The position numbers and the translations under genes are program-made. DNA of 64,000 nt, taken from positions 23,690,281-23,754,280 of the forward strand of contig NC_088867.1 in NCBI RefSeq assembly GCF_032884065.1. Reading direction: 5' to 3'. A model generated the notes under the pieces. It was not told where the DNA came from and did no database searches. It saw only the letters and a list, made by a program, of their open reading frames with translations. Below are positions 25,228 to 50,741 of this stretch, in pieces; position 1 is the first letter of the stretch, and every line of letters starts with the position of its first letter. This DNA is from Artemia franciscana (taxonomy: Eukaryota; Arthropoda; Branchiopoda; Anostraca; Artemiidae).

Positions 25228-25439
25228 GTTTCCCCTTATTTTCTAAAATAAGGCAAATTTTCTCAGGCTTTTAACTTTTGATGGGTAAGTTTAAACTTGA
25301 TGAAACTCATATAGCTAAAATCAGAATTAAAATATAATTCTTTTCATGTAATTATTGGTATAAAATTCCGTTTTTATGGCACTTGGTATCAAACAAGTGA
25401 CATATAGCAATCGCAAATTCTGTCGGTCTGTCGGTCCCG

Positions 25440-27420: not shown

Positions 27421-27599
27421 TTTCCTTTTAAATCAATCTATTGATTCTTAGAATTATCTAGAGCTCATACCATATGAGCTTTTGGCTCTTAGCTCTTCTT
27501 GCCTCGTCACAAGTGCCATATGAGCTCTTAGCTCTTGTTTAGAGTTTCGTTTACTACTGAGTCGGACGCTCCTTACTACAGTTCGTTACCACGAACTGT

Positions 27600-28017: not shown

Positions 28018-28147
28018 GGAAAGTGAATACAAAGTCAGAGGAGCTTCAGTTTCAAACATTGAAGTATTGAGAGAATTAAGAGCAATGAAAAAGATAATAA
28101 GAGAAAGACATCTTAGGCTTGGATACTATGGAGATATGATATTCGCT
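28018..28147 (+). CDS. RPC9-like (Pol III subunit) exon, N-terminal part
   Basis: Acceptor ATATTTTAG ends at 28017 and donor GTGAGT begins at 28148. One leading G completes a codon from an upstream exon; then 43 codons end in phase 0. The segment GASVSNIEVLRELRAM aligns in character with the start of RPC9/CRCP (NAALLSNYEVLQLL type), the Rpb4-like subunit that pairs with RPC8 in the RNA polymerase III stalk. A K/R-rich stretch (MKKIIRERHLRLG) follows. The start codon must lie upstream; the exon at 19602-19661 is one phase-compatible candidate. The identity is stronger when the three exons are read together. Confidence 0.62.
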
Positions 28148-28722
28148 GTGAGTTTTTCATTTTCCTTTTCAGTGGAAAAAAAACTAAATATAGTAATCTT
28201 ATTAAAACAGCTCTATATGTTTTTCGGGAAAATTGGTATCTCGGGATTTTCTGGCCTAAAAATGATCCACATAGGTCAAGAGTTTGAGAAAGTTCGTTCA
28301 GAAACTTAATTTTGAAAAAAAGGACCCGTGTGAGTGACGTCATATTTATCAAGACATTTCAAGAGAATAAATTACATGCCCCCCCTTCAAGAGTGATCGT
28401 GTCTTTTAGTATCTACTAGCTGTTGGGGTGGCGCTTCGCGCCCCCCCGCGCGCGTAAGTCGTTACGCGCCATATTAGTTATGCGCCATTGTAGTTGTGTC
28501 CCTGTGTCCCACCTGTGAATATAGATAGATTTATATATGTGTTTCAAACTACGTAAAAATTGCGAATAAACAACATTCTTGGCTTTCCCATTGTCTGTGC
28601 ATATACAAAGCCGTATGTACTAATAATGACGTCATATGCAAACGCTCTTTTTACAAACAAACAAACATGCATCCACACAACTCGTTTTTATATAGATAGA
28701 TAGATAGATAGATACAATAAAA

Positions 28723-29575
28723 TTAACTGCGTAAAACTTGCGAATATACAACATTCTTCGCTGTCCAATTGTCGCTGCATATAAATACATTGTCAGGTTT
28801 ACCGACCCTCGAACATGCAACGTACAATTGTCCATGGGAAGAACAATTAGTATTAAGATCTATACCACATTTTTCTAATGATTGACCTTGAGCTTTGTTA
28901 ATGGTGATTGCAAATACTAATCGAATTGGGAATTGCAATCTTTTAAATTGAAAAAGCAGATCCGTTGGAATCATGGGAATGCGAGGAATAAGAACAGCCT
29001 CACCCTCATAAGGCCCTGTCAAGATTGTGGCCTCTATTAGGTTTTCCATTGTTTTTTTTTACGGCAAGTCGCGTGCCATTGCAAAGCTTTGGTGGGTTGA
29101 TATTTCTTAAAAAGTATTATTGGTACGCCTATTTTTAGTTGTAGCACGTGTGGTGGAAACCCTGAAGGATCTATGGAATTTAAAAATTCAGATGGATAAT
29201 TAACCGCTTCATTTGGTTCCAAAACTGTGTCGACTGACTTGTAAAGGACTGCCTGGTCTCGAATCTTGGTCAAAACAATATTGTTGATTTCGTGGACGTC
29301 TATATTTTTGGGTGCGAGAATCGCTCTTTCACTTAGCCATTTATTATTTTTATAATTTTTTAGAATATTCGGAAATACTTTTTCAATCAATTCATTTTTG
29401 GACGTCACTAAATTACGGAAATCAGCAGGTAGTTGTATACGTCCTGAAATTGAGTCTACTGTTTGACCAGAGTCATCGTTTTGCAATCGGACACGCATAT
29501 TTGTAGTTAATTTTAATATTTTTACGTGTGCCCATAAATTAGAATTTTTTAGGCAAGCATTCATTTCGTCTGCAG
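28723..29575 (-). pseudogene. Helitron Pif1-type helicase end, duplicated copy
   Basis: This is the downstream copy of a tandem duplication. It carries helicase motif V (FAITINKAQGQSLEKCGIDL) and motif VI (HGQLYVACSRVGKPDNVF) and ends YSQVLRS. It has a 14-codon deletion after DDSGQT relative to the other copy, and a frameshift in a T-run at about 29050. It cannot be functional. Confidence 0.85.
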
Positions 29576-29758
29576 GAGTTAAACTACGTAAAAATTGCGA
29601 ATATACAACATTCTTGGCTTTCCCATTGTCTCTGCATATACAAAGCCGTATGTACTAATAATGACATCATATGCAAACGCTCTTTTTGCAAACAAACAAA
29701 CATGCATACACACAACTCGTTTTTATATAGATAGATAGATAGATAGATTCAATACAAA

Positions 29759-30640
29759 TTAACTGCGTAAAACTTGCGAATATACAACATTCTTCGCTGT
29801 CCAATTGTCGCTGCATATAAATACATTGTCAGGTTTACCGACCCTCGAACATGCAACGTACAATTGTCCATGGGAAAAACAATCAGTATTAAGATCTATA
29901 CCACATTTTTCTAATGATTGACCTTGAGCTTTGTTAATGGTGATTGCAAATGCTAATCGAATTGGGAATTGCAATCTTTTAAATTGAAAAGGCAGATCCG
30001 TTGGAATCATGGGAATGCGAGGAATAAGAACAGCCTCACCCTCAAAAGGCCCTGTCAAGATTGTGGCCTCTATTAGGTTTTCCATTGTTTTTTTTACGGC
30101 AAGTCGAGTGCCATTGCAAAGCTTTGGTGGGTTTATATTTCTTAAAAGTATTATTGGTACGCCTATTTTTAGTTGTAGCACGTGTGGTGGAAACCCTGAA
30201 AGATCTATGGAATTTAAAAATTCAGATGGATAATTAACCGCTTCATTTGGTTCCAAAACTGTGTCGACTGACTTGTAAAGGACTGCCTGGTCTCGAATCT
30301 TGGTCAAAACAATATTGTTGATTTCGTGGACGTCTATATTTTTGGGTGCGAGAATCGCTCTTTCACTTAGCCATTTATTATTTTTATAATTTTTTAGAAT
30401 AGTCGGAAATACTTTTTCAATCAATTCATTTTTGGACGTCACTAAATTACAGAAATCAGCAGGTAGTTGTATACGTCCTGAAATTGAGTCTACTGGGAGC
30501 TTTCCGTTTCCAATTGTCAGCAATTGATCTGAAAATGTTTGACCAGAGTCATCGTTTTGCAATCGGACACGCATATTTGTAGTTAATTTTAATATTTTTA
30601 CGTGTGCCCATAAATTAGAATTTTTCAGGCAAGCATTCAT
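29759..30640 (-). pseudogene. Helitron Pif1-type helicase, C-terminal half
   Basis: A 293-codon open frame starts inside the helicase at DEMNACLKNSNLW-type sequence and runs through TTNMRVRLQ, SERAILAPKN, GVPIILLRNI, motif V (INKAQGQS) and motif VI (LYVACSR). Motifs I-III are absent: a zinc-finger segment is fused just upstream (~30645) out of frame. This fragment is the best-preserved frame of the copy. In an intact element the protein would be a Rep/helicase driving rolling-circle transposition; here it is broken. Confidence 0.85.
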
Positions 30641-30644
30641 TCGT

Positions 30645-31388
30645 CTTCAATGGCTCTGGTGGTGCAGCCAATAGAGGAAGTTTAACTTTTCCTGAGGCGC
30701 AACACATTCCCATTGTTTCACCATTGAATTTCAAGGCCTTGCAATAGGGACAAATTTTAGACATTGTCCCGATTTGAACACATCTACTCAAGCTATAATC
30801 ATCGACTGGGTTGTACCTGAATGCCAGGTGATAACTTTCAGGTTGCTCTGATTCCTCGGCACGCTTTCTTTTCTTACTTTCTCTATCAGCAGCAAGCCTG
30901 ATTTCTTGCTGTTCTTGTGATTCCTCGGCACGCTTTCTTTTCTTACTTTCTCTATCAGCAGCAAGCCTGATTTCTTGCTGTTCTTGTAATTCCTCGGCAC
31001 GCCTTCTTTTTTCACTTTCTCTTATAGCAGCAAGTCCGCTTCCGCGTTGCTCTGGTAGTTCCTCGGCACGCTTTCTGTTCTTTTTTTCTCTATCAGCCTA
31101 AAGCCTGTTTCCTTGCTGTTCTTTTGATTCCTCGGCACGCTTTCTGTTCTTTCTTTCTCTATCAGCCTCAAGCCTGTTTCCTTGCTGTTCTTTTGATTCC
31201 TCGGCACGCTTTCTGTTCTTTCTTTCTCTATCAGCCTCAAGCCTGTTTCCTTGCTGTTCTTTTGATTCCTCGGCACGCTTTCTTTTCTGACTTTCTCTAT
31301 CAGCAGCAAGTTTTTTGGCATAGACTCTTTGAGCATCTTCATCGGCTTTTGCCATGGTAAGTTCATCGGTCATTGTAAACTTAAACAT
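30645..31388 (-). pseudogene. Helitron N-terminal region: basic repeats and zinc finger
   Basis: The protein begins at a methionine near 31360-31388 (TMADEL-type start), then repeats of about 24 residues ([20 protein letters not shown]) shifting between frames. Next is a CPYCKALKFNGETMGMCC zinc finger with downstream GKVKLP. This order is typical of the N-terminus of animal Helitron proteins before the Rep nuclease. Frameshifts break the repeats, and a deletion junction at about 30645-30655 joins the zinc finger to the helicase end. Confidence 0.75.
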
Positions 31389-31529
31389 TAATAGATTTCT
31401 ACGTGAACATATGTCTTAAATATCTTGAATGACGTCACCGTCAAAGCATAAATGACGACAACTAATTTCATGACGTCAGTCAACACAGAAACATGACGTC
31501 ACCTTATCCACAGACAGACACACAGACAG

Positions 31530-31569
<40 letters not shown>

Positions 31570-32454
31570 TTTAACTACGTAAAACTTGCGAATATACAGC
31601 ATTCTTCGCTGTCCTATTGTCTGTACATATAAATAGATTGTCAGGTTTCCCGACTCTTGAACATGCAACATATAATTGTCCATGAGAAAAACAATCCGTA
31701 TTCAGATCTATACCTCATTATGCTAATGATTGCCCTTGAGGTTTGTTGATGGTGATTGCTATTCAAACATTCCCTGTGTCCCCATCGTCATTTATATATC
31801 CCCCTGTGCCCCCCGGCGTCCCCGTTGTAGTTGTGTCCCAGTCGTCATTTATAGTCGACAAACATGACGTCAGTCGACACACAAACATGACGTCAGTCGA
31901 CACACACGTCCCAGTCGTCATTTGTCTCCCGGTGTCCCAGTCTGTAATTTCTCTTTGAATGTCCCGGTCGTCATTTATATTCCCTGTGTCCTGGTCTGTA
32001 TATACATTCGTTTTTGAATTGGTATATGATGAAATAATTTTTTTTGTTTTTTTCCTTTTTTGTTTTTAGCTTTTTTTTTGGTTTTTACCTATTTTTTAGC
32101 TTTTTATTTTTTTTTTCTTTTTTCTTTTTAGTTTTTTGTAGTTTTTACCTTTTTTAGTTTTTTTTTATTTTTATTTTTTTAGTTTTCTTTTTCTCCTTTA
32201 TTTTTCAGTTTTTTCCTTTTTTTAGTTTATTTTCTTTTTCAGTTTTTAGTTTTTTCGTTAGTTTTTAGTTGTTTTTTTTCTTTTTAGTCTTTTGCTGTTT
32301 TTACCCTTTTTTAGTTTTTTCATTTTTTTTCTTTTTTAGTTTTTAGTTTTTTACCTTTTTTAGTTTTTTTTTAGTTTTTTAGGTTTTTTAGTAGTTTTTA
32401 CCTGTTTTTAGTTTTTTCTTCTTTTTTAGTTTTTTCTTCTTCTTTTGTATTAAT

Positions 32455-32534
32455 GCTAAAGCCAAGGTTCGAACCTGGAACCTCTCGGACCTAGAACCTG
32501 GAACATAACGCTTTACCAACTCAGCTACTTCGAC
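32455..32534 (-). tRNA. tRNA-like 80-mer (probable pseudo-tRNA)
   Basis: The minus strand has A-box TAGCTGAGTTGG and B-box GGTTCGAACC, a T-arm CCAGG-TTCGAAC-CTTGG, and near-complementary 7-nt ends (GTCGAAG with CTTTAGC, with mismatches). The anticodon arm cannot be folded confidently. It recurs inside Helitron DNA at 32.87 and 44.53 kb, so it is a hitch-hiking tRNA-derived module more than a working gene. Confidence 0.4.
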
Positions 32535-32872
32535 TTGAATACATTTACCTTTTTTAGTTTATTTTTATTTTTTTTTAGTTTTATTTTTCTCCTTTATTTG
32601 TCAGTTTTTTTCCTTTTTTTAGTTTTTTTTTTTTCTTTTTCAGTTTTTAGTTTTTTTAGTTTTTTTATTAGTTTTTAGTTTTTTTTTCTTTTTAGTTTTT
32701 ACCTTTTTTTAGTTTTTTTATTTTTTTTTGTAGTTTTTTAGTTGTTAGTTTTTTACCCTTTTTTTTTAGTTTTTTAGTTTTTTAGCTTTTTTATTTTTTT
32801 TTTAGTATTTTCTTTTTATTTTTTTTTTGTAGTTTTTATCTTTTTTAGTTTTTTTTCTTCTTTTGTATTAAT

Positions 32873-32947
32873 GCTAAAGCCAAGGTTCGAACCTGGAACC
32901 TCTCGGACCTAGAACCTGGAACATAACGCTTTACCAACTGAGCTACT
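32873..32947 (-). tRNA. Second tRNA-like module, split by a SINE
   Basis: It is nearly identical to the module at 32455-32534 up to AGCTACT, where a SINE is inserted. The remaining CTTCGGCTTG part resumes after 33110. Confidence 0.4.
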
Positions 32948-33098
32948 GTATTTGTATTTGTATCGGATTAACGACACTTCTTGACTACTAAGATCCCTGC
33001 GTCGGCCCTGTAGTGCATTCCTGCAGCATGGTTCGATCTCTGGGTCCCGTATTACCACGCTAAGGTCAAACCCACTGCGCCAAAACAGGTAGTTATAT
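32948..33098 (-). mobile_element. tRNA-derived SINE with 12-bp target duplication
   Basis: The target word AACTGAGCTACT is present intact at 32936-32947 and at 33099-33110. Between them, on the minus strand, is an A-box (TGGCGCAGTGGG), a B-box (GATCGAACC), a body and an (AAATAC)n tail next to the left duplication. All SINE hallmarks are present in 151 bp. Confidence 0.8.
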
Positions 33099-33235
33099 AA
33101 CTGAGCTACTTCGGCTTGAATACATTCGTTTTTGAATTGGTATGTGATGAAATAATTCAGACGTCATATGCGGACAGTGACGTCACTCGACACACAGACA
33201 CACAGACAACTTATTTTTATATATATAGATGACGC

Positions 33236-34470
33236 AGGCTACACTATGAACAAAAGTAAAACAAAGAATTATGTTGTTAAAAGGTGCATGGCAGACAAAA
33301 TTATAACGAGTCAGAAACGAAAGTGAAGAACGAAGAAATATAAGGATATTAAGTTGAAACATTTTGGAGGAGTTTCGATTAGACAAAAAGACTACGCATG
33401 CAAGTATTAAAAGGGCGTATAAGTAATATCATAGACAGTGGGCAATAGGCATGCAGCAACGAGGGTCGGAACGAATAAAAAATGAAAGTGAAGAACAAAA
33501 AAATTGTGGCTAGAAGATATGTGGCAGCAAGAACAAAGAATTATATGATTAGAAGATAAGTGGCAGTGAGAATTACAAGCAACAGCGAAAATCAGAACGT
33601 GTCAAAAATTAAAGCAAAGAACAAAAAATTGTACTATTACAAGACAAGCCACAGAATATGTCAAAAATATAAGTGAAGAACAAATAATTGTTCTATTACA
33701 AGACAAGCCACAGGAGGAATTAGAAGGAGCCGAAAACTACAGTGAAGAGGAAAGAAATATTACGTTAGAAGAACAACGCCATCGCAACCTTTAACGCTAA
33801 CAAACTGTTGGATATAAACCAGTATGACCCTACAGAGTTGCCGTAAACTACGTAAGTGCTAATTTTAAGTCATTGAATCCCGTCAACGTTGTGTACATTC
33901 ACTGTGGTGCCTTCCATTTTCCTGAGAAGGAGTACTGAACAAAGGTGACTCATTTGGAGGTTGCTGCCTGCTCGGTTGAATGGCATTGTTACCTCCACAG
34001 TTTCCAAATGAATTTTTTTTAAGACACCACCTGCTTTCTAAAGAGTTTCACAAACAAATCTGAAGCTAGAACTCATGCTTCACTTTAGCTTCATTCAACG
34101 TAAGCATTGACCAAACCATCGATTGTGATTTAGCAGAACATCCACCACAAACCCCTGAAGGTGATTTTGAACCACCTTTACGTGGCCAAAATTAGACCCT
34201 GATGAAGCTGTTGAAGAACGCCTTGCATATCCTTTAATGTATGGGATCTCTCCTGACCCAAGGAACCCCTTGGAAGAAATATTGTGAGACATACACAACT
34301 ATGCCAAAAGTTACATGAAAACGCGATAATTGCAGGATGATGTAATTCAACTTGTTGCTTCACTGGGACTATAGTCTCGGTTAGAAGAAACGTGACAATG
34401 AGAACCTATATGTAACATCTTGCCGTGTAGCTCCAACGGGGACCGGTGGTTTCGCCGTCGGTCTCCTAGA
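33236..34470 (+). pseudogene. Decayed relic, possibly a second Helitron-type N-terminus
   Basis: The words AAAGTGAAGAACAAA and ACAAGACAAGCCACAG recur through 33.27-33.74 kb, as expected of degenerate N-terminal repeats. Near 33.87-33.93 kb the plus frame gives NVVYIHCGAFHFPEKEY, resembling a C..C/H finger upstream of Helitron Rep domains of another family. Many stops. Low confidence. Confidence 0.3.
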
Positions 34471-34629
34471 ACTGCATCTATATATATAAAAATAAGTTGT
34501 CTGTCTGTGTGTCTGTCTGTCAGGTGACGTCATGTTTTTGTGTCGACTGACGTCATGAAGTTAGTTGTCGTCATTTTTGCTATGACGGTGACGTCATTAA
34601 CGGTATTTAAGACATTTGTTCACGGAAAA

Positions 34630-34995
34630 ATGTTTAATTGTAAGATGACTGAAGAACCTACAATTGCAACAGCCGAGGAAGCTGCTCAAAGAGTTTATGC
34701 CAAAAAACTTGCTGCTGATAGAGAAAGTAAGAAAAGAAAGCGTTCCGAGGAATCACAAGAACAGCAAGAAAACAGGCTTTCAGCTGATAGAGAAAGTAAG
34801 AAAAGAAAGCGTGCCGGGGAATCACAAGAACAGCAAGAAAACCGGCTTGCGGCTAAAGAACGCAAAACCGCGCAGTTAGATGAAAATCCACCTGGACAGC
34901 GAGAGTCAAAACATATCAAAACTGAAAATGATAGCGATGATGATTGGGTTTGGGATTTTGACTTGGATAAGGTCATCAATGCCTACCAGATTTAA
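34630..34995 (+). CDS. Helitron N-terminal basic-repeat protein fragment
   Basis: From ATG 34630 ([10 protein letters not shown]) the frame is open to a TAA at 34993-34995. It contains two copies of a DRES.KRKR..ES.EQQENRL repeat, then AAKERKTAQLDENPPGQRES and an acidic DSDDDWVWDFDLD end. The composition predicts a charged coiled-coil-like region. The matching part of full Helitron proteins precedes the zinc finger and Rep nuclease, both absent here. Related fragments occur at 31, 41, 45 and 46 kb. Unlikely to have a function of its own. Confidence 0.6.
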   Translation: MFNCKMTEEPTIATAEEAAQRVYAKKLAADRESKKRKRSEESQEQQENRLSADRESKKRKRAGESQEQQENRLAAKERKTAQLDENPPGQRESKHIKTENDSDDDWVWDFDLDKVINAYQI

Positions 34996-35129
34996 GTTAA
35001 AAAAACAAAGGTTCGTCGATATGTACTTCATAGTGACGCTGAAAAATAAAGAAGAAAAAGAAAACTGAAAAAAGAAAAAAGGTAAAAAACTAAAACAAAA
35101 ACTAAAAAGAAAAAAACACTCAAAGAGAA

Positions 35130-35520
35130 ATTACAGACCGGGACACAAATGACGACCGAGACAGAGGGAATATAAGTGACGACCGGGAGCCTCAAAGAGA
35201 AATTACAGACTGGGACACCCGGACACAAATCACGACCGGGGAACACAGGGAATATAAATGACGACCGGGACACAGGGACACAACTACAACGGGGACGCCG
35301 GGGGCACAGGTGGGATATATAAATGACGACCGGGACACAGGTATTGTTCGAATAGAAATTACAGACCAGGGACACCGGGACACAAATGACGACCGGGACA
35401 CAGGGAATATAAATGACGACCGGGACACTCAAAGAGAAATTACAAACTGGGACACCGGGACACAAATGACGACCGGGACACAAGGAATATAAATGACGAC
35501 CGGGACACAGGGACACATCA
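35130..35520. repeat. GACGACCGGGACACAGGG minisatellite
   Basis: About a dozen units of 24-45 bp alternate between ACAAATGACGACCGGGACAC and ATATAAATGACGACCGGGAC versions, with longer units containing ACAACTACAACGGGGACGCC. The same minisatellite, in either orientation, marks other Helitron copies at 31.76, 42.2, 42.7, 43.0, 43.25, 44.05, 44.75, 51.15 and 51.65 kb. Confidence 0.85.
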
Positions 35521-35637
35521 TTAGAATAATGAGGTATAGATCTGAATACGGATTGTTTTTTCCCATAGACAATTATATGTTGCATGTTCAAGAGTCAGTA
35601 AACCTGACAATCTATTTATATGCACAGGACAATGGGA

Positions 35638-35737
35638 NNNNNNNNNNNNNNNNNNNNNNNNNNNNNNNNNNNNNNNNNNNNNNNNNNNNNNNNNNNNNNN
35701 NNNNNNNNNNNNNNNNNNNNNNNNNNNNNNNNNNNNN
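35638..35737. other. Assembly gap (100 N)
   Basis: Exactly 100 Ns, the conventional size for a gap of unknown length. It hides the 3' end of Helitron H3 and the acceptor and start of the following RPC9-like exon. Confidence 0.99.
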
Positions 35738-35882
35738 GTATTTAAATAATTCTGCCTGTGGTTCGGAGAAATATAACCAAATTCAATCGCTTGAAAAGAA
35801 ATTAGAGGGTCTTGGTCTAAGCGTTGAGAACACAGTACAAATTGTTAACCTTTTACCCAGTAATTCAGCTCAAATTGCATTG
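35738..35882 (+). CDS. RPC9-like (Pol III subunit) exon, central part
   Basis: The frame opens at the gap edge with YLNNSACGSEKYNQIQSLEK and continues through LEGLGLSVENTVQIVNLLP to NSAQIAL, ending in phase 0 at donor GTAAGG (35883). RPC9/CRCP proteins have a YL..TPC..Q....... segment and then a L.K.E..Q..NL.P....EIQL block, which this matches in order and spacing. The acceptor is inside the gap. Read with 28018-28147 and 49615-49689, the three exons make an Rpb4/RPC9-type protein of the expected ~110-150 residues. Confidence 0.65.
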
Positions 35883-36108
35883 GTAAGGCATTGCTTTTCT
35901 TTTATTTTTGTTTTAATTATATGCTTTTTTCCTATTTAAATTAAATGTAATACTTCCTAATTTGAAAAAAAAAATGAAAATAATCAATGTTCACATAAAA
36001 GAAGGAAATTTGTGCCTTTGAATTTCTGATTGCTTCTAGCTTTGCATCAATAGTGGTTAGACTGGTGTGATTTAGTGCGTCTTAGTACCCTAGCGGATTC
36101 TACTACTA

Positions 36109-36421
36109 AGTAAGTAAGTAAGACGGCACTAGACCCTTAAGATCCAAATCGTTGGTACTGATCTCTGTTTCGTGGCCCTTCAGCCAGGAAGTGCAATGGG
36201 GGGGGGCAACCACCCTGTGTTTTCACACACCATTCCTGCTTACCTTCCCCAGAATTTTCCATGTACCCATTCAGAGCTGGGTCGACTCTCGCTGAGCTTA
36301 CAGAGTCACGCCACTGACCCCTGTCCCAAACCAAATAGCTGGCTACGCCTGGGATCGAACACGTTCCCCTTGGACAAAGAACTCTCAAACCAGCGCGCCA
36401 ACCACTTAGCCAGGCCGGCTT
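36109..36421 (-). mobile_element. tRNA-derived SINE (~313 bp)
   Basis: The minus-strand head begins GCCGGCCTGGCTAAGTGG (A-box region), with B-box GTTCGATCCCAGG and a long variable-arm-like stretch, suggesting a Leu/Ser-type tRNA ancestor. The body runs to a (CTTA)n tail (plus TAAG repeats at 36107-36123). Flanks GATTCTACTACTA (36096-36108) and GATTTTACTACTA (36422-36434) form a 13-bp target duplication with one mismatch. It sits in the last RPC9-like intron. Confidence 0.8.
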
Positions 36422-36879
36422 GATTTTACTACTACTGCTAAAAATTCTTTTGTGGCAACCCAGCAACTGTATAACCTGACGTAACCCTCTTAACTGTCTT
36501 CCATCGTGAACCTAGGCAGTATTATCTGACCACATATTTATGACCAGACAGGGTTGTTTGGACATTTTTTACGTCCAAATAGGGCTTTGGAATTTTCTTA
36601 AAATACTTCCGCTGCCAAACATCTGGCATATCTTCCTCTAGTTTTCGAGGCGTCTTAGAGCTATTCTTGACAACTGTCACTATGGGAGCTTCAAGTTCCT
36701 TTTATTATCAATATCCGTCCATTTATAAACAAAAATATCCGAAAGGGCTCAATGGCCCGTTATTTGGGGAAAAAACAACAAAACAAAATATAAATAACTA
36801 TTAAATGCATTCCCACTTAAAATATATTTAGATTCTACTCACCAATCCTCACCCGATCACAACCGGTCTCCGCACCACC

Positions 36880-38210
36880 TGCTTAAAAAAAAAAAAAAAA
36901 ATAATAATAATAAAAAATATGCATCAAGGCCCCAACACTCACACCACCCAAACCTAAATTATTAAATCAATCTAAATAATTAATTTAAAAAATACATCTA
37001 AAGAATTAAACAACTGATCAATATAAATAACTAATCAATATTATAATTTAATTTATTTATTTTAATTAAAAAGTTCTTCAACTGTTTCTTGAAGGAGCCT
37101 ATGGTACAGGACCATCGAATCCCAACAGGAATGGAATTCCAGGCACGTCCGACAGCAACTATTAGACCCAACTCTGAGCGCACTGCAGAGGTGGATGGTA
37201 CTAGCACATTATCCTGATTCCTAGTTTCATAAGGCCTAACATTTCTAACAATTTCAAGAAGCCCGGAAGAACTTGATGGAAGGTCTCCACGGAAATATTG
37301 AAACGTAATGAAAGAGAGGTGTAATGTATGAATATCTTTAATCTTCAGAAGTTCAACAGAAATATGGGTGGTAGACTGTAGGACTTATGCTGATTTCAGT
37401 TGGAGATTATGTAAAGGTGCAAGTAAAGATGGTAATGTAGACATTCACACTGACGATGAGTAACATAAATAAGGGTGAATAAGAGAGAAGTATAATAGAC
37501 GAAGGATGGAGAAAGGAAACAATCGCTTTAGCTTCCGAATAATTCCAAGGCCTCGAGAAATCTTTAATCTCATTGACTCATTATGCCGCTTGAAAGATAT
37601 GTTTTCATCTAGAATTACCCAAAGGAATCGAACAAACCGGTCAGCTGGGCGTAATATGGATGTCTTAGATGTTTGAAGCTCTGTCACTGTAGGGCAGCTT
37701 TTGCCTGTGCGGGAGAATATGATAAGAAACGATTTTTTTACATTCAAAGGTAATAAATTTGCATCAAACCAATGATATATGTTTTCTGTCTATTGCAGCT
37801 TGAGGATAAGGGATGATTCATCAGGTGCTGCAGCCCCCAGGATGCTGTCGACGGTGAATGCAAAGAGTTCTTCATGTTGACCAGGCGTATATTGCCGCAG
37901 GAATAAGGCCGAAGTCAAAAAACTGTCGTACAAAATGAAGAAGCATACAATGAAGAACACATACGTGTTCTGTTGAGCACTTCTCCCGAAAACCAAACTG
38001 GTACCGATGAAAAAACTTCTTCGCGTCCAGGAAACTCATCAGACGCTTTAGCATAGCCTTTTTAAATATTTTAGAAAAAACAGACAGAAGAGATATAGAC
38101 CTATTGTTCTCTGGGTCCTCCCGGTCACCTCCTTAAAATAATGCTATCACTCGTGCCAACTTGAGATGCTAAGGGAATATTCCGAGCTTGAATGACTGGT
38201 TAACCGAGTG
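36880..38210 (-). mobile_element. 5'-truncated LINE (CR1/L2-like), decayed
   Basis: Read on the minus strand: KLARVIALF, a stop, GGD, then NNRSISLLSVFSKIFKKAM, MLKRLMSFLDAKKFFHRYQF and GFREKCSTEH (RT domain, 37.87-38.17 kb). Then ILRLLYFSLIHPYLCY (37.45 kb) and a C-terminal block FRGDLPSSSSGLLEIV...RAWNSIPVGIRW (37.07-37.32 kb). Several frameshifts and stops separate these. A/T-rich tail with poly-A and AAT repeats at 36.88-36.91 kb. It belongs to a different LINE lineage than the copy at 21.4 kb. Confidence 0.75.
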
Positions 38211-39103: not shown

Positions 39104-40862
39104 TCGCGTGCCATTGCAAAGCTTTGGTGGGTTGATATTTCTTAAAAGTATTATTGGTACGCCTATTTTTAGTTGTAGCACGTGTGGTGGAAACCCTGAA
39201 GGATCTATGGAATTTAAAAATTCAGATGGATAATTAACCGCTTCATTTGGTTCCAAAACTGTGTCGACTGACTTGTAAAGGACTGCCTGGTCTCGAATCT
39301 TGGTCAAAACAATATTGTTGATTTCGTGGACGTCTATATTTTTGGGCGCGAGAATCGCTCTTTCACTTAGCCATTTATTATTTTTATAATTTTTTAGAAT
39401 ATTCGGAAATACTTTTTCAATCAATTCATTTTTGGACGTCACTAAATTACAGAAATCAGCAGGTAGTTGTATACGTCCTGAAATTGAGTCTACTGGGAGC
39501 TTTCCGTTTCCAATTGTCAGCAATTGATCTGAAAATGTTTGACCAGAGTCATCGTTTTGCAATCGGACACGCATATTTGTAGTTAATTTTAATATTTTTA
39601 CGTGTGCCCATAAATTAGAATTTTTCAGGCAAGCATTCATTTCGTCTGCAGGAGTTGATCTAGGTATTATAGGTAATGTTTGCCTGAAATCTCCCGCAAG
39701 CAATATTAATGTGCTGCCAAAGGGTTTCGACTTCCCTCTCAAATCTTTCAAGCATTGATCCAGAGCCTCGAGCGATTTTTTGTGTGCCATTGTGCACTCA
39801 TCCCAAATAATAAGTTTGCATTGCTGCAATACTTTACCCATCCCAGATGATTTGGAAATATTGCACGTGGGAGTTTCTGTAGAATGCAAATTCAGAGGCA
39901 ATTTCAAAGCGGAATGAGCAGTTCTTCCACCAGGCAGCAATGTTGCGGCTATTCCGGACGACGCAATTGCCAACGCTATATCATTTTTTTGATCGAATTG
40001 ATGCCAGAATCAGTTTTATCACAAATGTTTTACCAGTACCTCCTGGCGCATCCAAAAAGAAAATTTCTCCAACGTTGTTATCGACACAATGCATTATCGT
40101 ATCATAAATGTCTTTTTGTTCCGACGTTAACTTGGAAATGTTATTTTGTACATACGACAATAGATCACTCGTACTGTAACTTTGTTCACGATCCAATTCT
40201 ACACATGTCGAAACAGCAGCGATACGGTTAGGTGAAGGCATTCCCAAATCCTGAAGAGGTTTGTTTGCCATACGTACGCACAAATCTTCTATAATAACTA
40301 GAGTGTAGTTATAAATTTCTGATTTAAAATCAAAAGTCATGTCTGACGTCTCTAACTGTTTTCGATGGAGTATATCTTCGGACATTTTTTACTTATATTT
40401 TTCCCATAACTCTGTAGGAGCTGATGGAGAGCAAGTTGTTAAAATGATGCCAAACAATGCACGAATTTGACTTGGGGTTGACGTTTCGCACGCGTCATTG
40501 ATGCAGTTATCCCAGTGTTGGTCATTCTCCAGTATATTCAGAGCTTGGCATGCACTACGGTAAGTGTCATGTATAGTACCGTTTACAGTTCTCAAATACT
40601 CAAAGGATGTCGGACCGGGTACATTCACCAAAAGCAGGCGTAGAAAGAAGCATTCATGTTGATTGGGGTGAACGGTGTAGAGTCTTCCTATCGTGGTATC
40701 TTTGAAGATGGTAGGTTGGCCGTCGACTGACTTACCCTGTTTTCGACGTTCAAATACTTTATTTTTAGTATTCCACGTGTAATACGAAGGCACTTCAGTA
40801 TACAGCAGTTTTTTTGCAAAAGAATCATTTTTGCAAAGCGAAAAAAAAGCTGTTAATGTTGT
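39104..40862 (-). pseudogene. Helitron Pif1-type helicase, N-terminal and central part
   Basis: The frame starts inside the pre-helicase linker (LTAFFSLCKND, VPSYYTWN, GRLYTVHPNQHECFFLRLLL). It is cut by a stop at 40389-40391, then gives Walker A (APGGTGKT, motif I). A frameshift in an A-run near 39980 leads to SSGIAATLLPGGRTAHS (motif Ia), WDEC (motif II) and LLAGDFRQTLPI (motif III). Homology ends at CNGTRL, followed by unrelated residues. It supplies the helicase motifs that copy H1 lacks, so the two together outline the ancestral protein's layout. Confidence 0.85.
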
Positions 40863-40980
40863 ATCACCGTCAAAGCAAAAATGACGACAACTAACTTCAT
40901 GACGTCAGTCAACACAGAAACATGACGTCACCTGACAGACAGACAGACACACAGACAGACAACTTATTTTTATATATATA
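39104..40980 (-). mobile_element. Helitron copy H4 (Rep deleted, 3' truncated)
   Basis: The 5' region with TGACGTCA motifs and the AACTTATTTTTATATA start (40.86-40.98 kb) is joined directly to mid-protein sequence at about 40862, so the N-terminus, zinc finger and Rep nuclease are deleted. The helicase then runs to 39104, where it breaks off before motifs V and VI. No GC hairpin or CTAG end. Confidence 0.75.
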
Positions 40981-40984
40981 TATA

Positions 40985-41448
40985 TATATACGTAGTTTTG
41001 ACACGTTTTGACTCTCGCTGTCCTGGTGGATTTTCATCTAACTGCGCGGTTTCGCGTTCTTTAGCCGCAAGCCTTTTGGCTTTAACCCTTTGAGCAGATT
41101 CCTTGGCTGTTTCTTCTGCCATTGTAGGATTTATACTAAAATTTCTCTTTGAATTAACTATTTGAGCAGCTTCCTCGGCTGTTTCTTCTGTCATTTTAAG
41201 ATCTATACTAAAAATTCCTCTTCACGTGCCAAGCTTGATAAAGCTCAACAATTTATAATAAACCTCAAAATTTTAAGTATCTGTTTTAATACTTTAATCT
41301 ATTGTGAAAATATTTCGAAATATTTATGCAATTCCCAGTTTTTACATTTTAGTTTGTTTTCTTTTTCTTCTTTATTTTTCAGACGTCATATGCAAACCCT
41401 CAACACAAAAATACATACAACTTATTTATATATATATATATATATATA
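40985..41448 (-). mobile_element. Helitron 5'-end fragment H5
   Basis: Two short copies of the N-terminal start (MTEETAEEAAQ) occur at 41.11-41.20 kb, with AAKERETAQLDENPPGQRES at 41.0 kb. Upstream is a T-rich tract and an ACAACTTATTTATATATA 5' end at about 41.41-41.45 kb. The rest is absent. Confidence 0.55.
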
Positions 41449-41570
41449 TAAAGAAGATATAATCTGGCGTAACAGACTTAGTGTAACAGACATAACACAC
41501 AAACAATTTATTTTTATGTATATAGATATAGATTATATATAAATTTATATAGTACATATATATATATATA

Positions 41571-41674
41571 CTAGCTGTTGGGGTGGCGCTTCGCGCCACC
41601 CCAACACCCCCCAAGCCCCCCCGCGCGCGTAAGTCGTTACGCGCCATTGTAGTTGTGTCCCTATGTCCCACCTG

Positions 41675-41740
<66 letters not shown>
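41571..41740 (-). mobile_element. Solo Helitron 3' end
   Basis: CTAG at 41571-41574 is followed (plus strand) by the terminal hairpin TTGGGGTGGCGC-TTC-GCGCCACCCCAA, then a C-rich tract, CGCGCGTAAGTCGTTACGCG and a (TA)n run (41678-41740). The inner hairpin present in other copies is missing. Interrupted on the right by the next copy. Confidence 0.65.
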
Positions 41741-41741
<1 letters not shown>

Positions 41742-41743
<2 letters not shown>

Positions 41744-42301
41744 TATCTATATAAAAATAAGTTGTCTGTCTGTGGATGGATGGATGGATGTGTCAGGTGA
41801 CGTCACCTGAAAAAACTGGATTAGGTGACGTCAAAACTGAAAAAACTAAAAAAAGGCAAAAACTACAAAAAAAACTAAAAACTAATAAAAAAAATAAAAA
41901 AGCTAAAAAACTAAAAAAACTATAAAGGTAAAAACCAATAAAAAACTAAAAAAAAAACTGAAAAAACTAAAAAAAGGCAAAAACTACAAAAAAAAACTAA
42001 AAACTAATAAAAAAAGTAAAAAAGCTAAAAAACTAAAAAAACTAAAAAAACTAAAAAAAGGTAAAAAACTAAAAAAAATAAAAAATAAAAAAAAACTAAA
42101 AAAAAGGAAAAAACTGAAAAATAAGCTAAAATAAAGGTAAAAACCAATAAAAAACTAAAAAAAAAGGAAAAAACTAATAAATGACGACACTCAAAGAGAA
42201 AGCGACCAGGACAAAAGGAATGTTCGATTAGCAATCAACAAAGCACCGGGACACAGGGAGTATAAATGACGACCAGGACATAAGTAAAAAAAAAAAAACT
42301 A
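41742..42301 (+). mobile_element. Helitron 5' end plus A-rich tract (truncated copy)
   Basis: TC at 41742-41743 starts a 5' end with GTTGTCTGTC, TGGATGGATGGA and GGTGACGTCACC. An (A)nCT low-complexity tract and a short minisatellite piece (42.18-42.28 kb) follow. A second 5' terminus begins at 42302, so this is a nested or tandem 5' portion. Confidence 0.55.
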
Positions 42302-43780
42302 TCTATATATATAAAAATAAGTTGTCTGTGGATCTGTGGATCGTGGATCAGGTGACGTCACCTGAAAAAACTGGATCAGGTGACGTCAAAACTGAAAAAA
42401 CTAAAAAAAGGCAAAAACTACAAAAAAAACTAAAAACTAATAAAAAAAATAAAAAAGCTAAAAAACTAAAAAAACTAAAAAAAGGCAAAAACTACAAAAA
42501 AAACTAAAAACTAATAAAAAAGCTAAAAAACTAAAAAAACTAAAAAAAAGGCAAAAACTACAAAAAAACTAAAAACTAATAAAAAAAAATAAAAAAGCTA
42601 AAAAACTAAAAAAACTAAAAAAACTAAAAAAAGGTAAAAAACTAAAAAAACTAAAAACTAAAAAAAAACTAAAAAAGGTAAAAACTAAAAGAACTAAAAA
42701 AGAAAAAAATAAATGACGACACTCAAAGAGAAAGCGACCAGGACAAAAGGAATGTTCGATTAGCAATCAACAAAGCACCGGGACACAGGGAGTATAAATG
42801 ACGACCAGGACACAAGTAAAAAAAAAAATTAACAAAACTAAAAAGAAGGTAAAAACTACAAAAAAACTAAAAAGAAAAAAAAACTAAAAACTAATAAAAA
42901 AACTAAAAAATCTAAAAATCTAAATAAACTAAAAAAGAAAAAAAAAAGGAAAAAAATAGAGGAGAAAAACAAAACTAAAAAACGAATGTATATACAGACC
43001 GGTACACCGGGATACAAATGACGACCGGGACACAGGGAATATAAATAACGACCGGGACACAGGGACACAACTACAACGGGGACACCGGGGGAAACAGGGG
43101 GATATAAATGACGACCGGGACAAAAAAACTAAAAAGAAATAAAAACTAAAAACTAATAAAAAAAACTAAAAAATCTAAAAATCTAAATAAGCTAAAAAAG
43201 AAAAAAAAAGGAAAAAAATAAAGGAGAAAAACAAAACTAAAAAACGAATGTATATACAGACCGGGACACCGGGATACAAATGATGACCGGGACCCGGGAC
43301 ACAGGGAATATAAATGACGACCGGGACACAGGGACACAACTACAACGGGGACACCGGGGGAAACAGGGGGATGTAAATGACGACCGGGACACCGGGACAG
43401 GGAATGGTCGATTAGCAATCACCATCAACAAAGCTCAAGGGCAATCATTAGAATCATGAGGTATAGATCTGAATACAGATTGTTTTCCCATGGACCATTA
43501 TATGTTGCATGTTCAAGAGTCGGTAAACCTGACAATCTATTTATATGCAAAGACAATGGGACAGCAAAGAATGTTGTATATTCGCAAGTTTTACGTAGTT
43601 AAAACCATATATATATATATATATATCTATATTCACAGGTGGGACATAGGGACACAACTACAATGGCGCGTAACTATTATGGCGCGTAACGACTTACGCG
43701 CGCGGGGGGGCTTGGGGGGGGCGCGAAGCGCCCCCACCAACTAGGTGTTGGGGTGGCGCGAAGCGCCACCCCAACAGCTA

Positions 43781-43781
<1 letters not shown>
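42302..43781 (+). mobile_element. Non-autonomous Helitron copy H7 with both ends
   Basis: It starts TC (42302-42303) TATATATATAAAAATAAG and ends CTAG (43778-43781) inside a (TA)n run. Order: GGTGACGTCACC, A-rich tracts, minisatellite blocks (42.72, 43.0 and 43.25 kb), decayed helicase motif VI tail (43.43-43.60 kb), (TA)n, GC-rich region, and two successive hairpins each followed by CTAG (43741-43744 and 43778-43781). It is the most complete non-autonomous copy in the window, about 1.48 kb. Confidence 0.8.
43746..43776 (+). terminator. Helitron 3' terminal hairpin
   Basis: GTTGGGGTGGCGC-GAA-GCGCCACCCCAAC is a 13-bp perfect stem just before CTAG, as expected of the rolling-circle terminator of Helitrons. 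This is a transposition end signal, not a transcription terminator. Confidence 0.75.

Positions 43782-43858
<77 letters not shown>
43782..43858. repeat. (TA)n microsatellite
   Basis: About 77 bp of pure TA between two Helitron copies of opposite orientation. Comparable tracts lie at 31532-31566, 41678-41740, 45971-46104, 50677-50741, 50896-50964 and 53385-53441. Confidence 0.95.
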
Positions 43859-43861
<3 letters not shown>

Positions 43862-44240
43862 TTTAACTACGTAAAACTTGCGAATATACAACATTCTTTG
43901 CTGTCCCATCGTCTCTGCATATAAATAGATTGTCAGGTTTACCGACTCTTGAACATGCAACGCATAATGGTCCATGGGAAAACAATCCGTATTCAGATCT
44001 ATACCTCATGATTCTATTGATTGCCCTTGAGCTTTGTTGATGGTGATTGCTAATCGACCATTTCCTTTGTTGCCGTCGTCATTTATATATCCCCCTGTGC
44101 CCCCCGGCGTCCCCGTTGTAGTTGTGTCCCTGTGTCCGGGTCGTCATTTATATTCCCTGTGTCCCCGTCGTCATTTGTGTCCCGGTGTCCCAGTCTGTGA
44201 TTTCTATTTGAGTGTCCCGGGCGTCATTTATATTCGTCAG

Positions 44241-44324
44241 GATATTGTAGGGCATCGTAGCATCGATGAGTTTAAGCAATTCTTGTCAACTGATTGTTTC
44301 GTCTATAAAGAATATTATCTCGAG
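44241..44324 (+). other. Exon-like segment inside a Helitron (possible capture)
   Basis: An 84-nt open segment is bounded by acceptor TATTCGTCAG (ending at 44240) and a consensus donor GAG|GTAAGA (44325). It starts and ends in phase 0 and encodes 28 residues such as GHRSIDEFKQF and FVYKEYYLE, with normal protein-like composition unlike the flanking minisatellite and T-rich DNA. Helitrons are known to pick up host exons. The donor gene is not identified, and the orientation is opposite to the Helitron. Confidence 0.4.
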
Positions 44325-44532
44325 GTAAGAACTGATCACCGACCACAACGATTGCCACTTTGTTGATAGTTGCGTATCAGGAGGCATCAATTCGATTGCT
44401 GTTTTTAAGCAGAAGCACTAAATTATTATTTTCGTGGAAAAGATGATATATATAAATATATATATATATTTTTTCTTTTTAGTTTTTTTGTAGTTTTTAC
44501 CTTTTTTAGTTTTTTTCTTCTTTTGTATTAAT

Positions 44533-44612
44533 GCTAAAGCCAAGGTTCAAACCTGGAGCCTCTTGGACCTAGAACCTGAAACATAACGCTTTACCAACTC
44601 AGCTACTTCGGC
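44533..44612 (-). tRNA. Third tRNA-like module in Helitron DNA
   Basis: It has the same A-box and arms as 32455-32534, with a B-box changed to GTTTGAACC and several substitutions. Its position next to T-rich low-complexity DNA is the same as in the other copies. Confidence 0.35.
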
Positions 44613-44984
44613 GTGAATACATTCGTTTTGAGCAGCTTCCTCGAGTGTTGCCATTGTAGGTTCTTCAGTCATTTTACAATTAGAAATTTCTCTTTCAACG
44701 GTCTTCTTACAATTAAAAATTTGTCTTTGAACGATATTCTTAAATACCTGTGTCCTGGTCGTCATTTATATTGCCTGTGTCCCGGTCGTCATTTGTGTCC
44801 CGGTATCCCAGTCTGTAATTTCTCCTTGAGTGTCCCGGTCGTTATTTATATTCCCTCTGTCCCGGTCGTCATTTGTGTCCCGGTCTGTAATTTCTCTTTG
44901 AGTGTTTTTTCTTTTTAGTATTTTTTAGTTTTTTACATTTTTTCTTTTTTCAGTTTTCTTTTTCTTCTTTATTTTTCAGCTTCA

Positions 44985-45236
44985 CTATGAAATACATATC
45001 GCCGAACCTTTGTTTTTTTTAACTAAAATCTGGTAGGCATTTTCCGTTTTGATATGTTTTGACTCTCGCTGTCCAGGTGGATCTTCATCTAACTGCGCGG
45101 TTTTGCGTTCTTTAGCCTCAAGCCTGTTTCCTTGCTGTTCTTTTGATTCCTCGGCACGCTTTCTTTTCTGACTTTCTCTATCAGCAGCAAGTTTTTTGGC
45201 ATAGACTCTTTGAGCAGCTTCCTCGGCTGTTGCCAT
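44985..45236 (-). pseudogene. Helitron N-terminal basic-repeat fragment
   Basis: The frame [20 protein letters not shown], one [15 protein letters not shown] repeat, then ERKTAQLDEDPPGQRES and a stop. It is shorter than the 34.6-kb copy by one repeat and the acidic part. Confidence 0.6.
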
Positions 45237-45631
45237 TGTAGGTTATTCAGTCATTTTACATTTAAACATTTTTCCGTCCACGATCTTCTTTGAGCATCTT
45301 CATCGGCTTTTGCCATTGTAAGTTCATCAGTCATTATAAACTTAAACATTAATAGATTTCTATGTGAACATATATGTCTTAAATATCTTTAATGACGTCA
45401 CCGTCATAGCAAAAATGACGACAACTAAAATCATGACGCCAGTCGACACAGAAACATGACGTCACCTGATCCACAGACAGACAACTTATTTTTATATATA
45501 TAGATAGATATAATTCTAAAATTGTCAGGTAATTTTCTATTTTGAAATAAAAACTAAAAATTATTGCTCAGACAACATAAATATTTTTGATATTTACATA
45601 ATAGCTTTAGTGGTTCTGGACTGAAAACTAA

Positions 45632-46936
<1,305 letters not shown>

Positions 46937-47706
46937 CCTTGCGACATTTTTGAAAAAAAGCTATAGTTACTCTTTTATTGCTCCTGACTAAAGTACCACT
47001 CGGGAGATTCCTGGAACCTGGACAGTCATTTGCTCTCATACATGCAAACGGATGTACTGAAGCTTGCTGACTGAATTCCTGGAGGTTCCGACCGAGCTTA
47101 GCAGATACTTTCCTAGCTTCTTCCATAACTGTTCCATAAATTTTAGGATTGTGTAGAATATTAATGAAAAGTATCTTCGTCCATTCTCAGAGCTATTATT
47201 TCGCTCAAAGCAGAAACTATGGAAAATAGGATGTAACAAAATAAATAGTAAATAAGCCTCTCAGAAACAAACTTGATCAATTAAGATTTAGTAAAGTCTT
47301 TGATCTAGTAATTTCTGATCAAACTTGATCAGAAGAATTTAGTATCTTATTATATGTGCGTTCAATGGATATTCCCTGAAAATGAGGATTAATGCAAAAA
47401 ATAAATAAAACATATTTTGATTGTAGAATTAAAATTCTTATTTTATTTTTTAAGAAAGCTTTACCAAGTGGATACACAAACATATTTAGGACATTTTCAT
47501 TGCTTAAACGCATAGGTTAAAAAAAACATGAAAAAAACTTCTTTATTAAATTAAAATATGGAGCAGGTCTTCTCTTCGAATTTTAAGTTAGGATTTAAAA
47601 CAAAAGAACTTTGAAGGAATTAACAGATGGGTTTGATGGATTGACGCCTAAGGAAGTTGGCTCTAATAGATATGCAGCGCCAAACTAGGTTGTTTTCTTG
47701 TCTTGT
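46937..47706. other. No gene recognised
   Basis: Unique A/T-rich intronic DNA. No repeat family or exon seen. Confidence 0.35.
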
Positions 47707-47916
47707 TCACTTGTTTTTACTGTCAACTTGAGAAACTGCAGCACTAGTAGAGAAAACTTCTGCGTGAGTGAATGTACTTGTAGAAGATAATGATGTATCT
47801 ACCCTTCTGACCCTATTCTTCATTCTCTGAAAGGCTAAAAAGAGAGTTTTAGAAGCCCCAGCCATACTATTTCTAGCAACAGGTCGTATGCAGGACTGTA
47901 CAAAGGTGTGATCGGC
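47707..47916 (-). CDS. Candidate terminal exon of an unknown minus-strand gene
   Basis: On the minus strand an acceptor TTTTCTCCATCCAG precedes a 69-codon frame in phase 0 ending TGA at 47707-47709. The peptide (ADHTFVQSCIRPVARNSMAG, then FLAFQRMKNRVRRVD and a S/T-rich end) looks like ordinary coding sequence and is outside the repeats. It would be nested in the last intron of the RPC9-like gene, opposite strand. Family not recognised. Confidence 0.35.
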   Translation of the reverse strand, partial: ADHTFVQSCIRPVARNSMAGASKTLFLAFQRMKNRVRRVDTSLSSTSTFTHAEVFSTSAAVSQVDSKNK

Positions 47917-48025
47917 CTGGATGGAGAAAACTTTTCAAATAAAATTTTTAATATCTTTCTGGCATGGTGGGATAGGATTCTATCTTGGTGGTTGCTCCAG
48001 AAAAAAATAATTAGAAAACAAATAC

Positions 48026-48115
48026 CAATAAAATGAGGTTTATATAACGCCGTGGAGACTTGGACCAGGAAATGGGCAACTTCTCTGTTTCTACTCGAGT
48101 CAAAGATCACCATTC
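48026..48115 (-). CDS. Candidate exon upstream of the 47.7-kb exon
   Basis: Acceptor TTAAGCAG ends at 48116 and donor GTATTT follows 48026 (minus strand). The only open frame starts ATG at 48113 and reads FDSSRNREVAHFLVQVSTAL, leaving one nucleotide. That phase does not match the next candidate exon, so either the pair is wrong or an exon is missing between them. Confidence 0.25.
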
Positions 48116-49614
48116 CTGCTTAATTCGATTTCTTGATCTCTAAGAAATTCACTTGAATGAATTTGGAGGAAATTATTGGGCTTTCGGCAACGTGGTGTTT
48201 AGGATTTGTAAGATTGCGCTAGATGCCAAGATTGGTTTTGACGGAATGTGACCTCGATCGAATCATGTGTGATCTACTGGTACTTTTCTGTCGCATTGTA
48301 AAGTTCTTCCACAAAGAAGACTCCACTGTTTGGAAGCATGGGTATAGTGTAGGCCATCCCTATCGCCTTTGGTACAGACCGGTCTTCCGCTCATCCTTTA
48401 TTGACTGTGAAATTTTTAGGTTTCTATTGGTTTCAACAACAGGATTACTTATGAATCTATCATGATTATTTCTTGAAAATAATTAGGATTGTCTTTAAGA
48501 AATATGTTAAGATAAGATGGCTGGCCTTGGCCTGTATAACTGTCAAAACTATGTTATTAAACCATTTATACGACTTGTTTATGTCTAGAATTAAATGTCA
48601 GCACTATGCGACGATGTATGCTTTAAAGAAGAAATAAAGGTAGGACATGAACAGTCAGCTGACTCTTCCAGTTACAAGTGTTTAAAAGGCATTTTATTTT
48701 TTTTGCACAAATGGATAGTATTTGTAAGTAGTATCGTATTCGAGTGATTTTTTTTATGTTTTACGTATTACTGTTTTCAATCAACTTGTTTTCTCTTTCA
48801 TTATGATAAATGTCAATAAACCTGTTTTTTTTATAATCTGGGTCTCAACTGCAATCTAGGTTCAATTAAAATCTGTCAGTGGGAACCTTCCGGTTTTATG
48901 CACATATTATAAGTGGAATAAAATTACCAACAGTAGTTATAATAGAAATTACAAGCAGTGCAGGTGCGTGATATCTTTTACTAAAATAATCAAATTCTGC
49001 TTGCCAAGAACCCGCGTTGATGATAATGGCCATAAATAATATTCGTAAATATGGACATAATTTCCATAATAGTGTGATGATGCCCTAAAAGTTTGGTTGC
49101 CTTAACCGCCAAGTACCTATAAGAAAGTCACAAGGTCTATCTTTTTGTCTAATAAAAGGGCGGTTTAGTTGAATGATCGGCTCGTGTTAGTTCTCATGCA
49201 TCTCCCTTCTTTTTATTTTTGTCTACCTCGATCACTGACATAAACTGCTGAGAAACGAAATCATGAACATTGTTGTAATGAAATTAGGCACATCTCTTTT
49301 TTCTATTGTTTGTAACTTTGGTCAATAAAAAGCTTTCGTCTTATTTTTGAATAGTTTTAACTAGTTCTTGTATATTTTTCAGTAACCGTTTTCAAGTAAA
49401 TATCGTTTGGCAATTAATCTATATGGATGATACGAAACATGGTAGGATCAGTTTCTGTAAGCTGAATTTGCCAAAAGAAACCGAAAAGGCTTTAAGACTT
49501 TCAAACTTATTTTATTTATAGTTTCTTTTTTCCACGATTTTTCTTTCCTTTTATTCATGGTTTGATTCTTGTTTTAAATGGGTAAGTGAATTATTTCTCT
49601 AATAATCTTTACAG

Positions 49615-49689
49615 ATTGTGGGCATTGATGAAGAACAAGAAAATCTAGCGGAAGAAATACTAGAATTGGTTCGTTTATATAGAAATTAG
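49615..49689 (+). CDS. RPC9-like (Pol III subunit) terminal exon
   Basis: Acceptor AATAATCTTTACAG ends at 49614. The frame continues from the previous exon in phase 0: IVGIDEEQENLAEEILELV, then five more residues and TAG at 49687-49689. RPC9/CRCP proteins have an IVEE.EERL.EEQIEE..  segment right after the EIQL block, which is what the join IAL-IVGIDEEQENL reproduces. The intron between them would be 13.7 kb and is filled with Helitrons, a LINE and a SINE. The protein lacks the long acidic tail seen in vertebrates. Confidence 0.62.
   Translation: MVGIDEEQENLAEEILELVRLYRN

Positions 49690-50674: not shown

Positions 50675-50676
<2 letters not shown>
49690..50676. other. 3' flank of the RPC9-like gene, no other gene seen
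   Basis: Contains T-runs near 50070-50120 and mixed A/T-rich DNA. I found no clear AATAAA close to the stop at 49689; the 3' UTR is undefined. Confidence 0.35.

Positions 50677-50741
<65 letters not shown>

What the first reader, a model, noticed from the sequence alone, without database searches (positions are those of the whole stretch)
28018..49689. RNA polymerase III subunit RPC9-like gene stretched over more than 21 kb by transposons
Three short exons share one phase-compatible frame and reproduce the RPC9/CRCP block order (SN.EVL near the N-terminus, YL.....C, NLLP....QIAL, IV...EE...EE). Exon 2 to exon 3 is a clean phase 0 join over a 13.7-kb intron made mostly of Helitrons, a LINE and a SINE. 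A protein of little over 100 codons thus carries two introns that are almost pure mobile DNA.
Basis: partly seen in the sequence, partly recalled or inferred. Interest (0 to 1): 0.7.

Follow-up and report, generated by a model that had tools for sequence, protein, structure and literature searches.

The report
Divergent RPC9-like gene, transposon-swollen introns
Three short exons in what is very probably a brine shrimp genome look like a much-changed version of an ordinary RNA polymerase III subunit gene with introns swollen by transposons, which is usual for this animal, and one of the joins is hidden by an assembly gap.

Summary
The three exon-like pieces are real open segments at the stated places. 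Joined, they match RPC9/Rpb4 better than any other Pfam family: PF03874, E 3e-5, 24.7 bits, just below the curated 25.6. They align in order with an RPC9 profile (E 2.6e-5) and not with RPB4 (E 0.75). The genome has a separate ordinary RPB4. Human RPC9 finds no credible other copy, and exons 1 and 2 occur once each. Best reading: a strongly diverged RPC9 gene.

Three corrections. A 100-N assembly gap (35638-35737) abuts exon 2, so its acceptor and the exon 1-2 join cannot be seen; the probable source assembly was ordered by RagTag on A. sinica. Exon 1 has no start codon, so a 5' exon is missing. "Almost pure mobile DNA" is too strong: in-window repeats cover 75% of known intron 1 and 43% of intron 2, plus a LINE.

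Long introns and abundant Helitrons are published for Artemia franciscana, the very probable source. No transcript was available. Ordinary; low interest.

The parts
28018..28147 (+). exon-like piece 1 (reading frame from 28019, 43 codons; donor in phase 0; needs an upstream exon for the start codon)
   Evidence: single place in the genome by protein search
28148..35637 (+). visible part of intron 1, 75% covered by repeats found elsewhere in the window
   Evidence: helicase ORF
28416..33230 (-). Helitron copy or composite: 3' end CTAG with hairpin at 28416, 5' end near 33230, with a PIF1-helicase fragment at 29762-30646
   Evidence: the end rules are recalled
34477..35637 (+). Helitron 5' part, cut by the assembly gap
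35638..35737 (.). 100-N assembly gap touching exon 2
35738..35882 (+). visible part of exon-like piece 2 (frame from 35739, 48 codons; true 5' end hidden by the gap)
   Evidence: single place in the genome by protein search
35883..49614 (+). intron 2, 43% covered by repeats found elsewhere in the window
36690..38132 (-). LINE-like repeat: 36690-37600 is high-copy; reverse-transcriptase fragment in the frame 37875-38132
   Evidence: the stretch between 37600 and 37875 was not tested
39056..41597 (-). Helitron with PIF1 helicase frames (39056-40009, 39984-40388) and a 3' end at 41571
   Evidence: extent inferred
49615..49689 (+). exon-like piece 3 (24 codons and TAG)
   Evidence: second copy on contig C4853

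Best explanation
The three pieces are exons of a single-copy, fast-diverged gene for RPC9 (C17/CRCP), the RNA polymerase III stalk subunit that pairs with RPC8, in a genome very probably of Artemia franciscana. The gene has at least one more exon upstream, carrying the start codon, and exon 2 probably extends into the assembly gap, because RPC9s have about 10 to 20 more residues between the SN.EV motif and YL. Helitron and LINE insertions enlarged the introns, which splicing removes. Shown: open frames, visible splice borders, family match, low copy number, repeat content. Inferred: transcription, splicing across the gap, orthology, Pol III function.
For: Pfam: joined peptide PF03874 E 3e-5; exons 2+3 alone 1.1e-4; exon 2 alone 0.003. 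hhalign against an RPC9 alignment: joined 2.6e-5 over residues 6-93, exon 1 alone 0.0026, exons 2+3 alone 3.2e-4 (single-comparison E-values). hhalign against RPB4: 0.75. Shuffle z for exons 2+3: human RPC9 8.5, yeast 5.4, archaeal RpoF 11.2, RPB4s -0.4 and 0.0. Ordinary RPB4 elsewhere. Human RPC9 against the genome: 4 places, best 18.8 bits, none credible, while vertebrate RPB4 finds its two exons at 75.5 and 56.6 bits under the same database size. Drosophila and humans lack an RPA14 orthologue (PMC7704258), leaving RPB4 and RPC9 as the animal members. Exons 1 and 2 unique in the genome.
Against: The Pfam score is 0.9 bits below the curated cut-off. BLASTP against human RPC9 gives no alignment. 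phmmer against PDB puts archaeal RpoF first at E 0.017 and lists no RPC9 at E <= 10. S. pombe RPC9 matches no better than shuffles (z 0.9 for exons 2+3). Only 8 of 24 columns invariant in three RPC9s are kept in the aligned candidate, and KAE is lost. tblastn with human RPC9 misses the candidate exons, so an equally diverged second RPC9 could be missed too. The one exonic difference to the C4853 copy is non-synonymous (E to A). The assembly gap stands between exons 1 and 2. No transcripts.
Confidence: 0.72

Rival explanations
1. Exons 2 and 3 are a real RPC9/Rpb4-family gene, but exon 1 belongs to something else or is a chance open segment; the gap and reference-guided scaffolding brought it near.
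For: 100-N gap between exons 1 and 2; the probable source assembly was scaffolded by RagTag on A. sinica. Exon 1 alone has no Pfam or PDB match and raises the Pfam score by only 1.8 bits.
Against: Exon 1 is the best N-terminal RPC9 match in the window, beats 40 of 40 random windows, matches RPC9 at the right end, lies on the same strand and has a consensus donor in phase 0.
Confidence: 0.15
2. A lineage-specific or archaeal-RpoF-like member of the Rpb4 fold that is not the RPC9 orthologue, or an unrelated small helical protein that resembles the HRDC-type domain by chance.
For: Best PDB sequence match is archaeal RpoF with shuffle z 11.2; KAE motif lost; weak identity to human RPC9.
Against: Colinear match with RPC9 from SN.EV to the C-terminal domain; no human-like RPC9 found elsewhere.
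Confidence: 0.09
3. A decaying pseudogene of RPC9.
For: Strong divergence; one of one exonic differences between the two copies of exon 3 is non-synonymous; no start exon seen.
Against: No stop or frameshift in 115 visible codons and all visible splice borders intact; no better copy found.
Confidence: 0.04

Closest known systems
RPC9 / CRCP (yeast C17), Pol III stalk subunit
   Same: SN.EV motif near the N-terminus, YL...C, N..P before the last helices, EE-rich C-terminal part, in the same order
   Different: 8 of 24 RPC9-invariant columns kept; KAE motif lost; shorter visible linker; ends right after the domain
Archaeal RNA polymerase subunit F (RpoF/Rpo4; M. jannaschii 1go3_F)
   Same: C-terminal domain aligns best of all PDB chains (E 0.017; z 11.2)
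   Different: Eukaryotic spliced gene with an RPC9-like N-terminal motif
RPB4 (Pol II)
   Same: Same Pfam family
   Different: No better than shuffles for RPB4, hhalign E 0.75; this genome has an ordinary RPB4 elsewhere
Long-intron genes of Artemia franciscana
   Same: Mean intron 3458 bp, called exceptionally long (PMC8406910, passages); Helitrons 8.81% of the genome (PMC11492255, passages)
   Different: The introns here are longer than that mean: 13.7 kb, and at least 7.5 kb with a gap

Membership tests
Pfam PF03874 RNA_pol_Rpb4 | score at or above the curated cut-off (25.6 bits) | tested here: not met
   24.7 bits, E 3e-5, with a peptide probably missing a stretch in the gap; so it is called RPC9-like, not a formal member
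RPC9 | better match to RPC9 than to RPB4 | tested here: met
   hhalign 2.6e-5 against 0.75; shuffle z, although S. pombe RPC9 is not matched (z 0.9)
RPC9 | N-terminal SN.EV tip-associated segment | tested here: met
   exon 1; its link to exon 2 is not shown
RPC9 | KAE(K)L motif of the C-terminal domain | tested here: not met
   replaced by VEN in the alignment (compared)
RPC9 | reciprocal best match with a known animal RPC9 | tested here: not met
   BLASTP with human RPC9 shows no alignment; human RPC9 does not find the exons; no arthropod RPC9 was available
RPC9 | incorporation in Pol III with RPC8 | not testable with these tools
   needs biochemistry; a genome search for RPC8 did not complete
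Functional spliced gene | transcript across the exon joins | not testable with these tools
   no RNA data

The most novel reading that the evidence does not exclude
The only RPC9 of this animal has diverged so far that animal-type search no longer finds it: the KAE motif is lost and its C-terminal domain is nearest to archaeal RpoF by sequence. The Pol III stalk would then have been remodelled in this lineage.
Probability: 0.25. Interest if true: 0.4.

Novelty: new member of a known kind. Interest (0 to 1): 0.2.

Why it matters
If right, it annotates an essential Pol III subunit that simple homology search misses, and shows that an apparently missing polymerase subunit may only be diverged and split by transposon-filled introns. 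It also warns that reference-guided scaffold gaps can sit exactly at exon borders. The transposon-swollen introns themselves are usual for Artemia.

Tried and rejected
RPB4 rejected: an ordinary RPB4 exists on another scaffold, and RPB4 matches no better than shuffles. Exons as pieces of a transposon rejected: exons 1 and 2 each have one place in the genome at E <= 10, exon 3 has a second on C4853, and a fifth place (C12, E 6.8) is chance (Pfam of that stretch shows nothing). Human RPC9 places in the genome (4) looked at: L005 has a stop in frame and no RPC9 motif, L003 likewise and L004 is the same sequence, L006 is reverse-transcriptase RNase H. An intronless retrocopy that would prove splicing was looked for and not found. 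A haplotype that would fill the gap was looked for: C4853 covers only the exon 3 side. Carrying C4853's exon 3 change lowers the Pfam score to 23.5. Not used: structure prediction, since a joined peptide did not clearly meet its stated rule. Papers: searches for RPC9 with intron terms, RPC9/RPB4/HRDC, RPC9/Drosophila and Artemia with CRCP listed nothing on this gene; two searches were for Artemia genome and intron papers.

Full report
What is there. The window lies at G000:C5:23690281-23754280 of a genome of 1,270,528,402 bases in 6468 contigs. Size and contig number are close to the published female Artemia franciscana assembly (1,270,721,445 bases, 6486 scaffolds, GC 34.71%, Helitrons 8.81%; PMC11492255, passages only), and the window's GC is 35.3%. 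The longest scaffold differs: 67.3 Mb in the paper, while C1 here has 71.5 Mb. The organism is therefore very probable, not proven.

The exons. Piece 1 (28018-28147) has an acceptor-like ttttag and a GTGAGT donor in phase 0, and reads ESEYKVRGASVSNIEVLRELRAMKKIIRERHLRLGYYGDMIFA. Piece 2 (visible 35738-35882) has a GTAAGG donor. Piece 3 (49615-49689) has a good acceptor and ends in TAG. Pieces 2 and 3 join in phase 0.

Bases 35638-35737 are a run of exactly 100 N that touches piece 2. Its acceptor is invisible, and it may extend into the gap. The gap interrupts a Helitron on the left. The probable source assembly was ordered on A. sinica by RagTag after linked-read scaffolding, and 100 N is that tool's default gap (recalled). 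So the order and distance of pieces 1 and 2 rest on scaffolding. Piece 1 has no in-frame ATG after the stop at 27992, so an upstream exon must exist if the gene is whole.

Family. Pfam: joined peptide PF03874 24.7 bits, E 3e-5, cut-off 25.6; pieces 2+3 22.9 bits, E 1.1e-4; piece 2 alone 18.3 bits; piece 1 alone nothing. hhalign against a three-sequence RPC9 alignment: E 2.6e-5 for the whole, 0.0026 for piece 1 at the N-terminus, 3.2e-4 for pieces 2+3; against RPB4 0.75. These are single-comparison E-values, and part of the yeast row was recalled. Shuffle z-scores for pieces 2+3: archaeal RpoF 11.2, human RPC9 8.5, yeast C17 5.4, S. pombe 0.9, vertebrate RPB4 -0.4, own RPB4 0.0. Against this reading: BLASTP with human RPC9 finds no alignment, and PDB phmmer gives RpoF at 0.017 and no RPC9. 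Of 24 columns invariant in the three RPC9s, 8 remain invariant with the candidate added (A9, E15, V16, L20, L78, N88, P91, E110, which used a shortened yeast row).

Chance. Among AG..GT-bounded open segments of 75-240 nt on both strands, the frame of piece 1 is the best match to the RPC9 N-terminal halves (127; next 113 on +, 110 on -). Piece 1 itself scores 125; 40 random windows had maxima up to 120. Piece 2 itself scores 137, reached by 2 of 40 random windows.

Copy number and elimination. The joined peptide finds five places at E <= 10: pieces 1, 2 and 3, a second copy of piece 3 on C4853, and a chance place. C4853 (13,082 bases) matches 47226-50741 at 97.9% and is probably the other haplotype. 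In the aligned 498 columns there are 8 substitutions, one of them in the exon and non-synonymous. A separate ordinary RPB4 exists. Human RPC9 finds four weak places, none credible. The control with vertebrate RPB4 works (75.5 and 56.6 bits), but human RPC9 also misses the candidate's own exons, so elimination is only moderate. Drosophila and humans have no RPA14 (PMC7704258, part 1 of 2 read), so RPC9 is the remaining animal member.

Introns. In-window repeats cover 75% of the 7490 known bases of intron 1, 43% of the 13,732 bases of intron 2, and 0% of the three exons. PIF1 helicase frames, four exact copies of a Helitron-type 3' end and 15 copies of a 5' end support Helitrons. The stretch from 36690 to 37600 is high-copy: 878 first-look candidates, 40 scored, 89-90% identity. 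A reverse-transcriptase fragment lies in the frame 37875-38132. The SINE was not tested. The stretch 46936-49614 is not repeated in the window, and its genome-wide copy number did not complete. Artemia's mean intron of 3458 bp was already called exceptionally long (PMC8406910, passages).

Function. RPC8-RPC9 form the Pol III stalk, and yeast C17 domain deletions are defective in specific pre-tRNA synthesis (PMC8837262, passages). That the present gene does the same is inference.

Verdict. A probable, diverged RPC9 gene with transposon-enlarged introns; the first exon join is not shown.

Noticed in passing
57041-58399 (-): Uninterrupted 453-codon frame with a full histone deacetylase domain (PF00850, E 1.9e-90), class IIb-like by recalled motifs; intronless, so possibly a retrogene.
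   Followed up: partly
32454-32534 (-) and 44532-44612 (-): tRNA-like sequences above the Rfam cut-off inside repeated Helitron-rich DNA; a third related copy of the repeat lies at 32822-32963.
   Followed up: no
about 25400-27500: G-rich array of diverged repeated units of roughly 280-450 bases.
   Followed up: no
14521-17370 (-): Open gypsy-type pol frame with protease-like, RT, RNase H and integrase domains.
   Followed up: no
24082-24723 (+): Fragment of a hAT transposase (dimerisation region, E 4e-7).
   Followed up: no
18430-18980: About three direct repeats of roughly 185 bases.
   Followed up: no
47226-50741 and G000:C4853: Probable second haplotype left as a separate 13-kb contig, 97.9% identical, with different Helitron-rich flanks.
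   Followed up: partly
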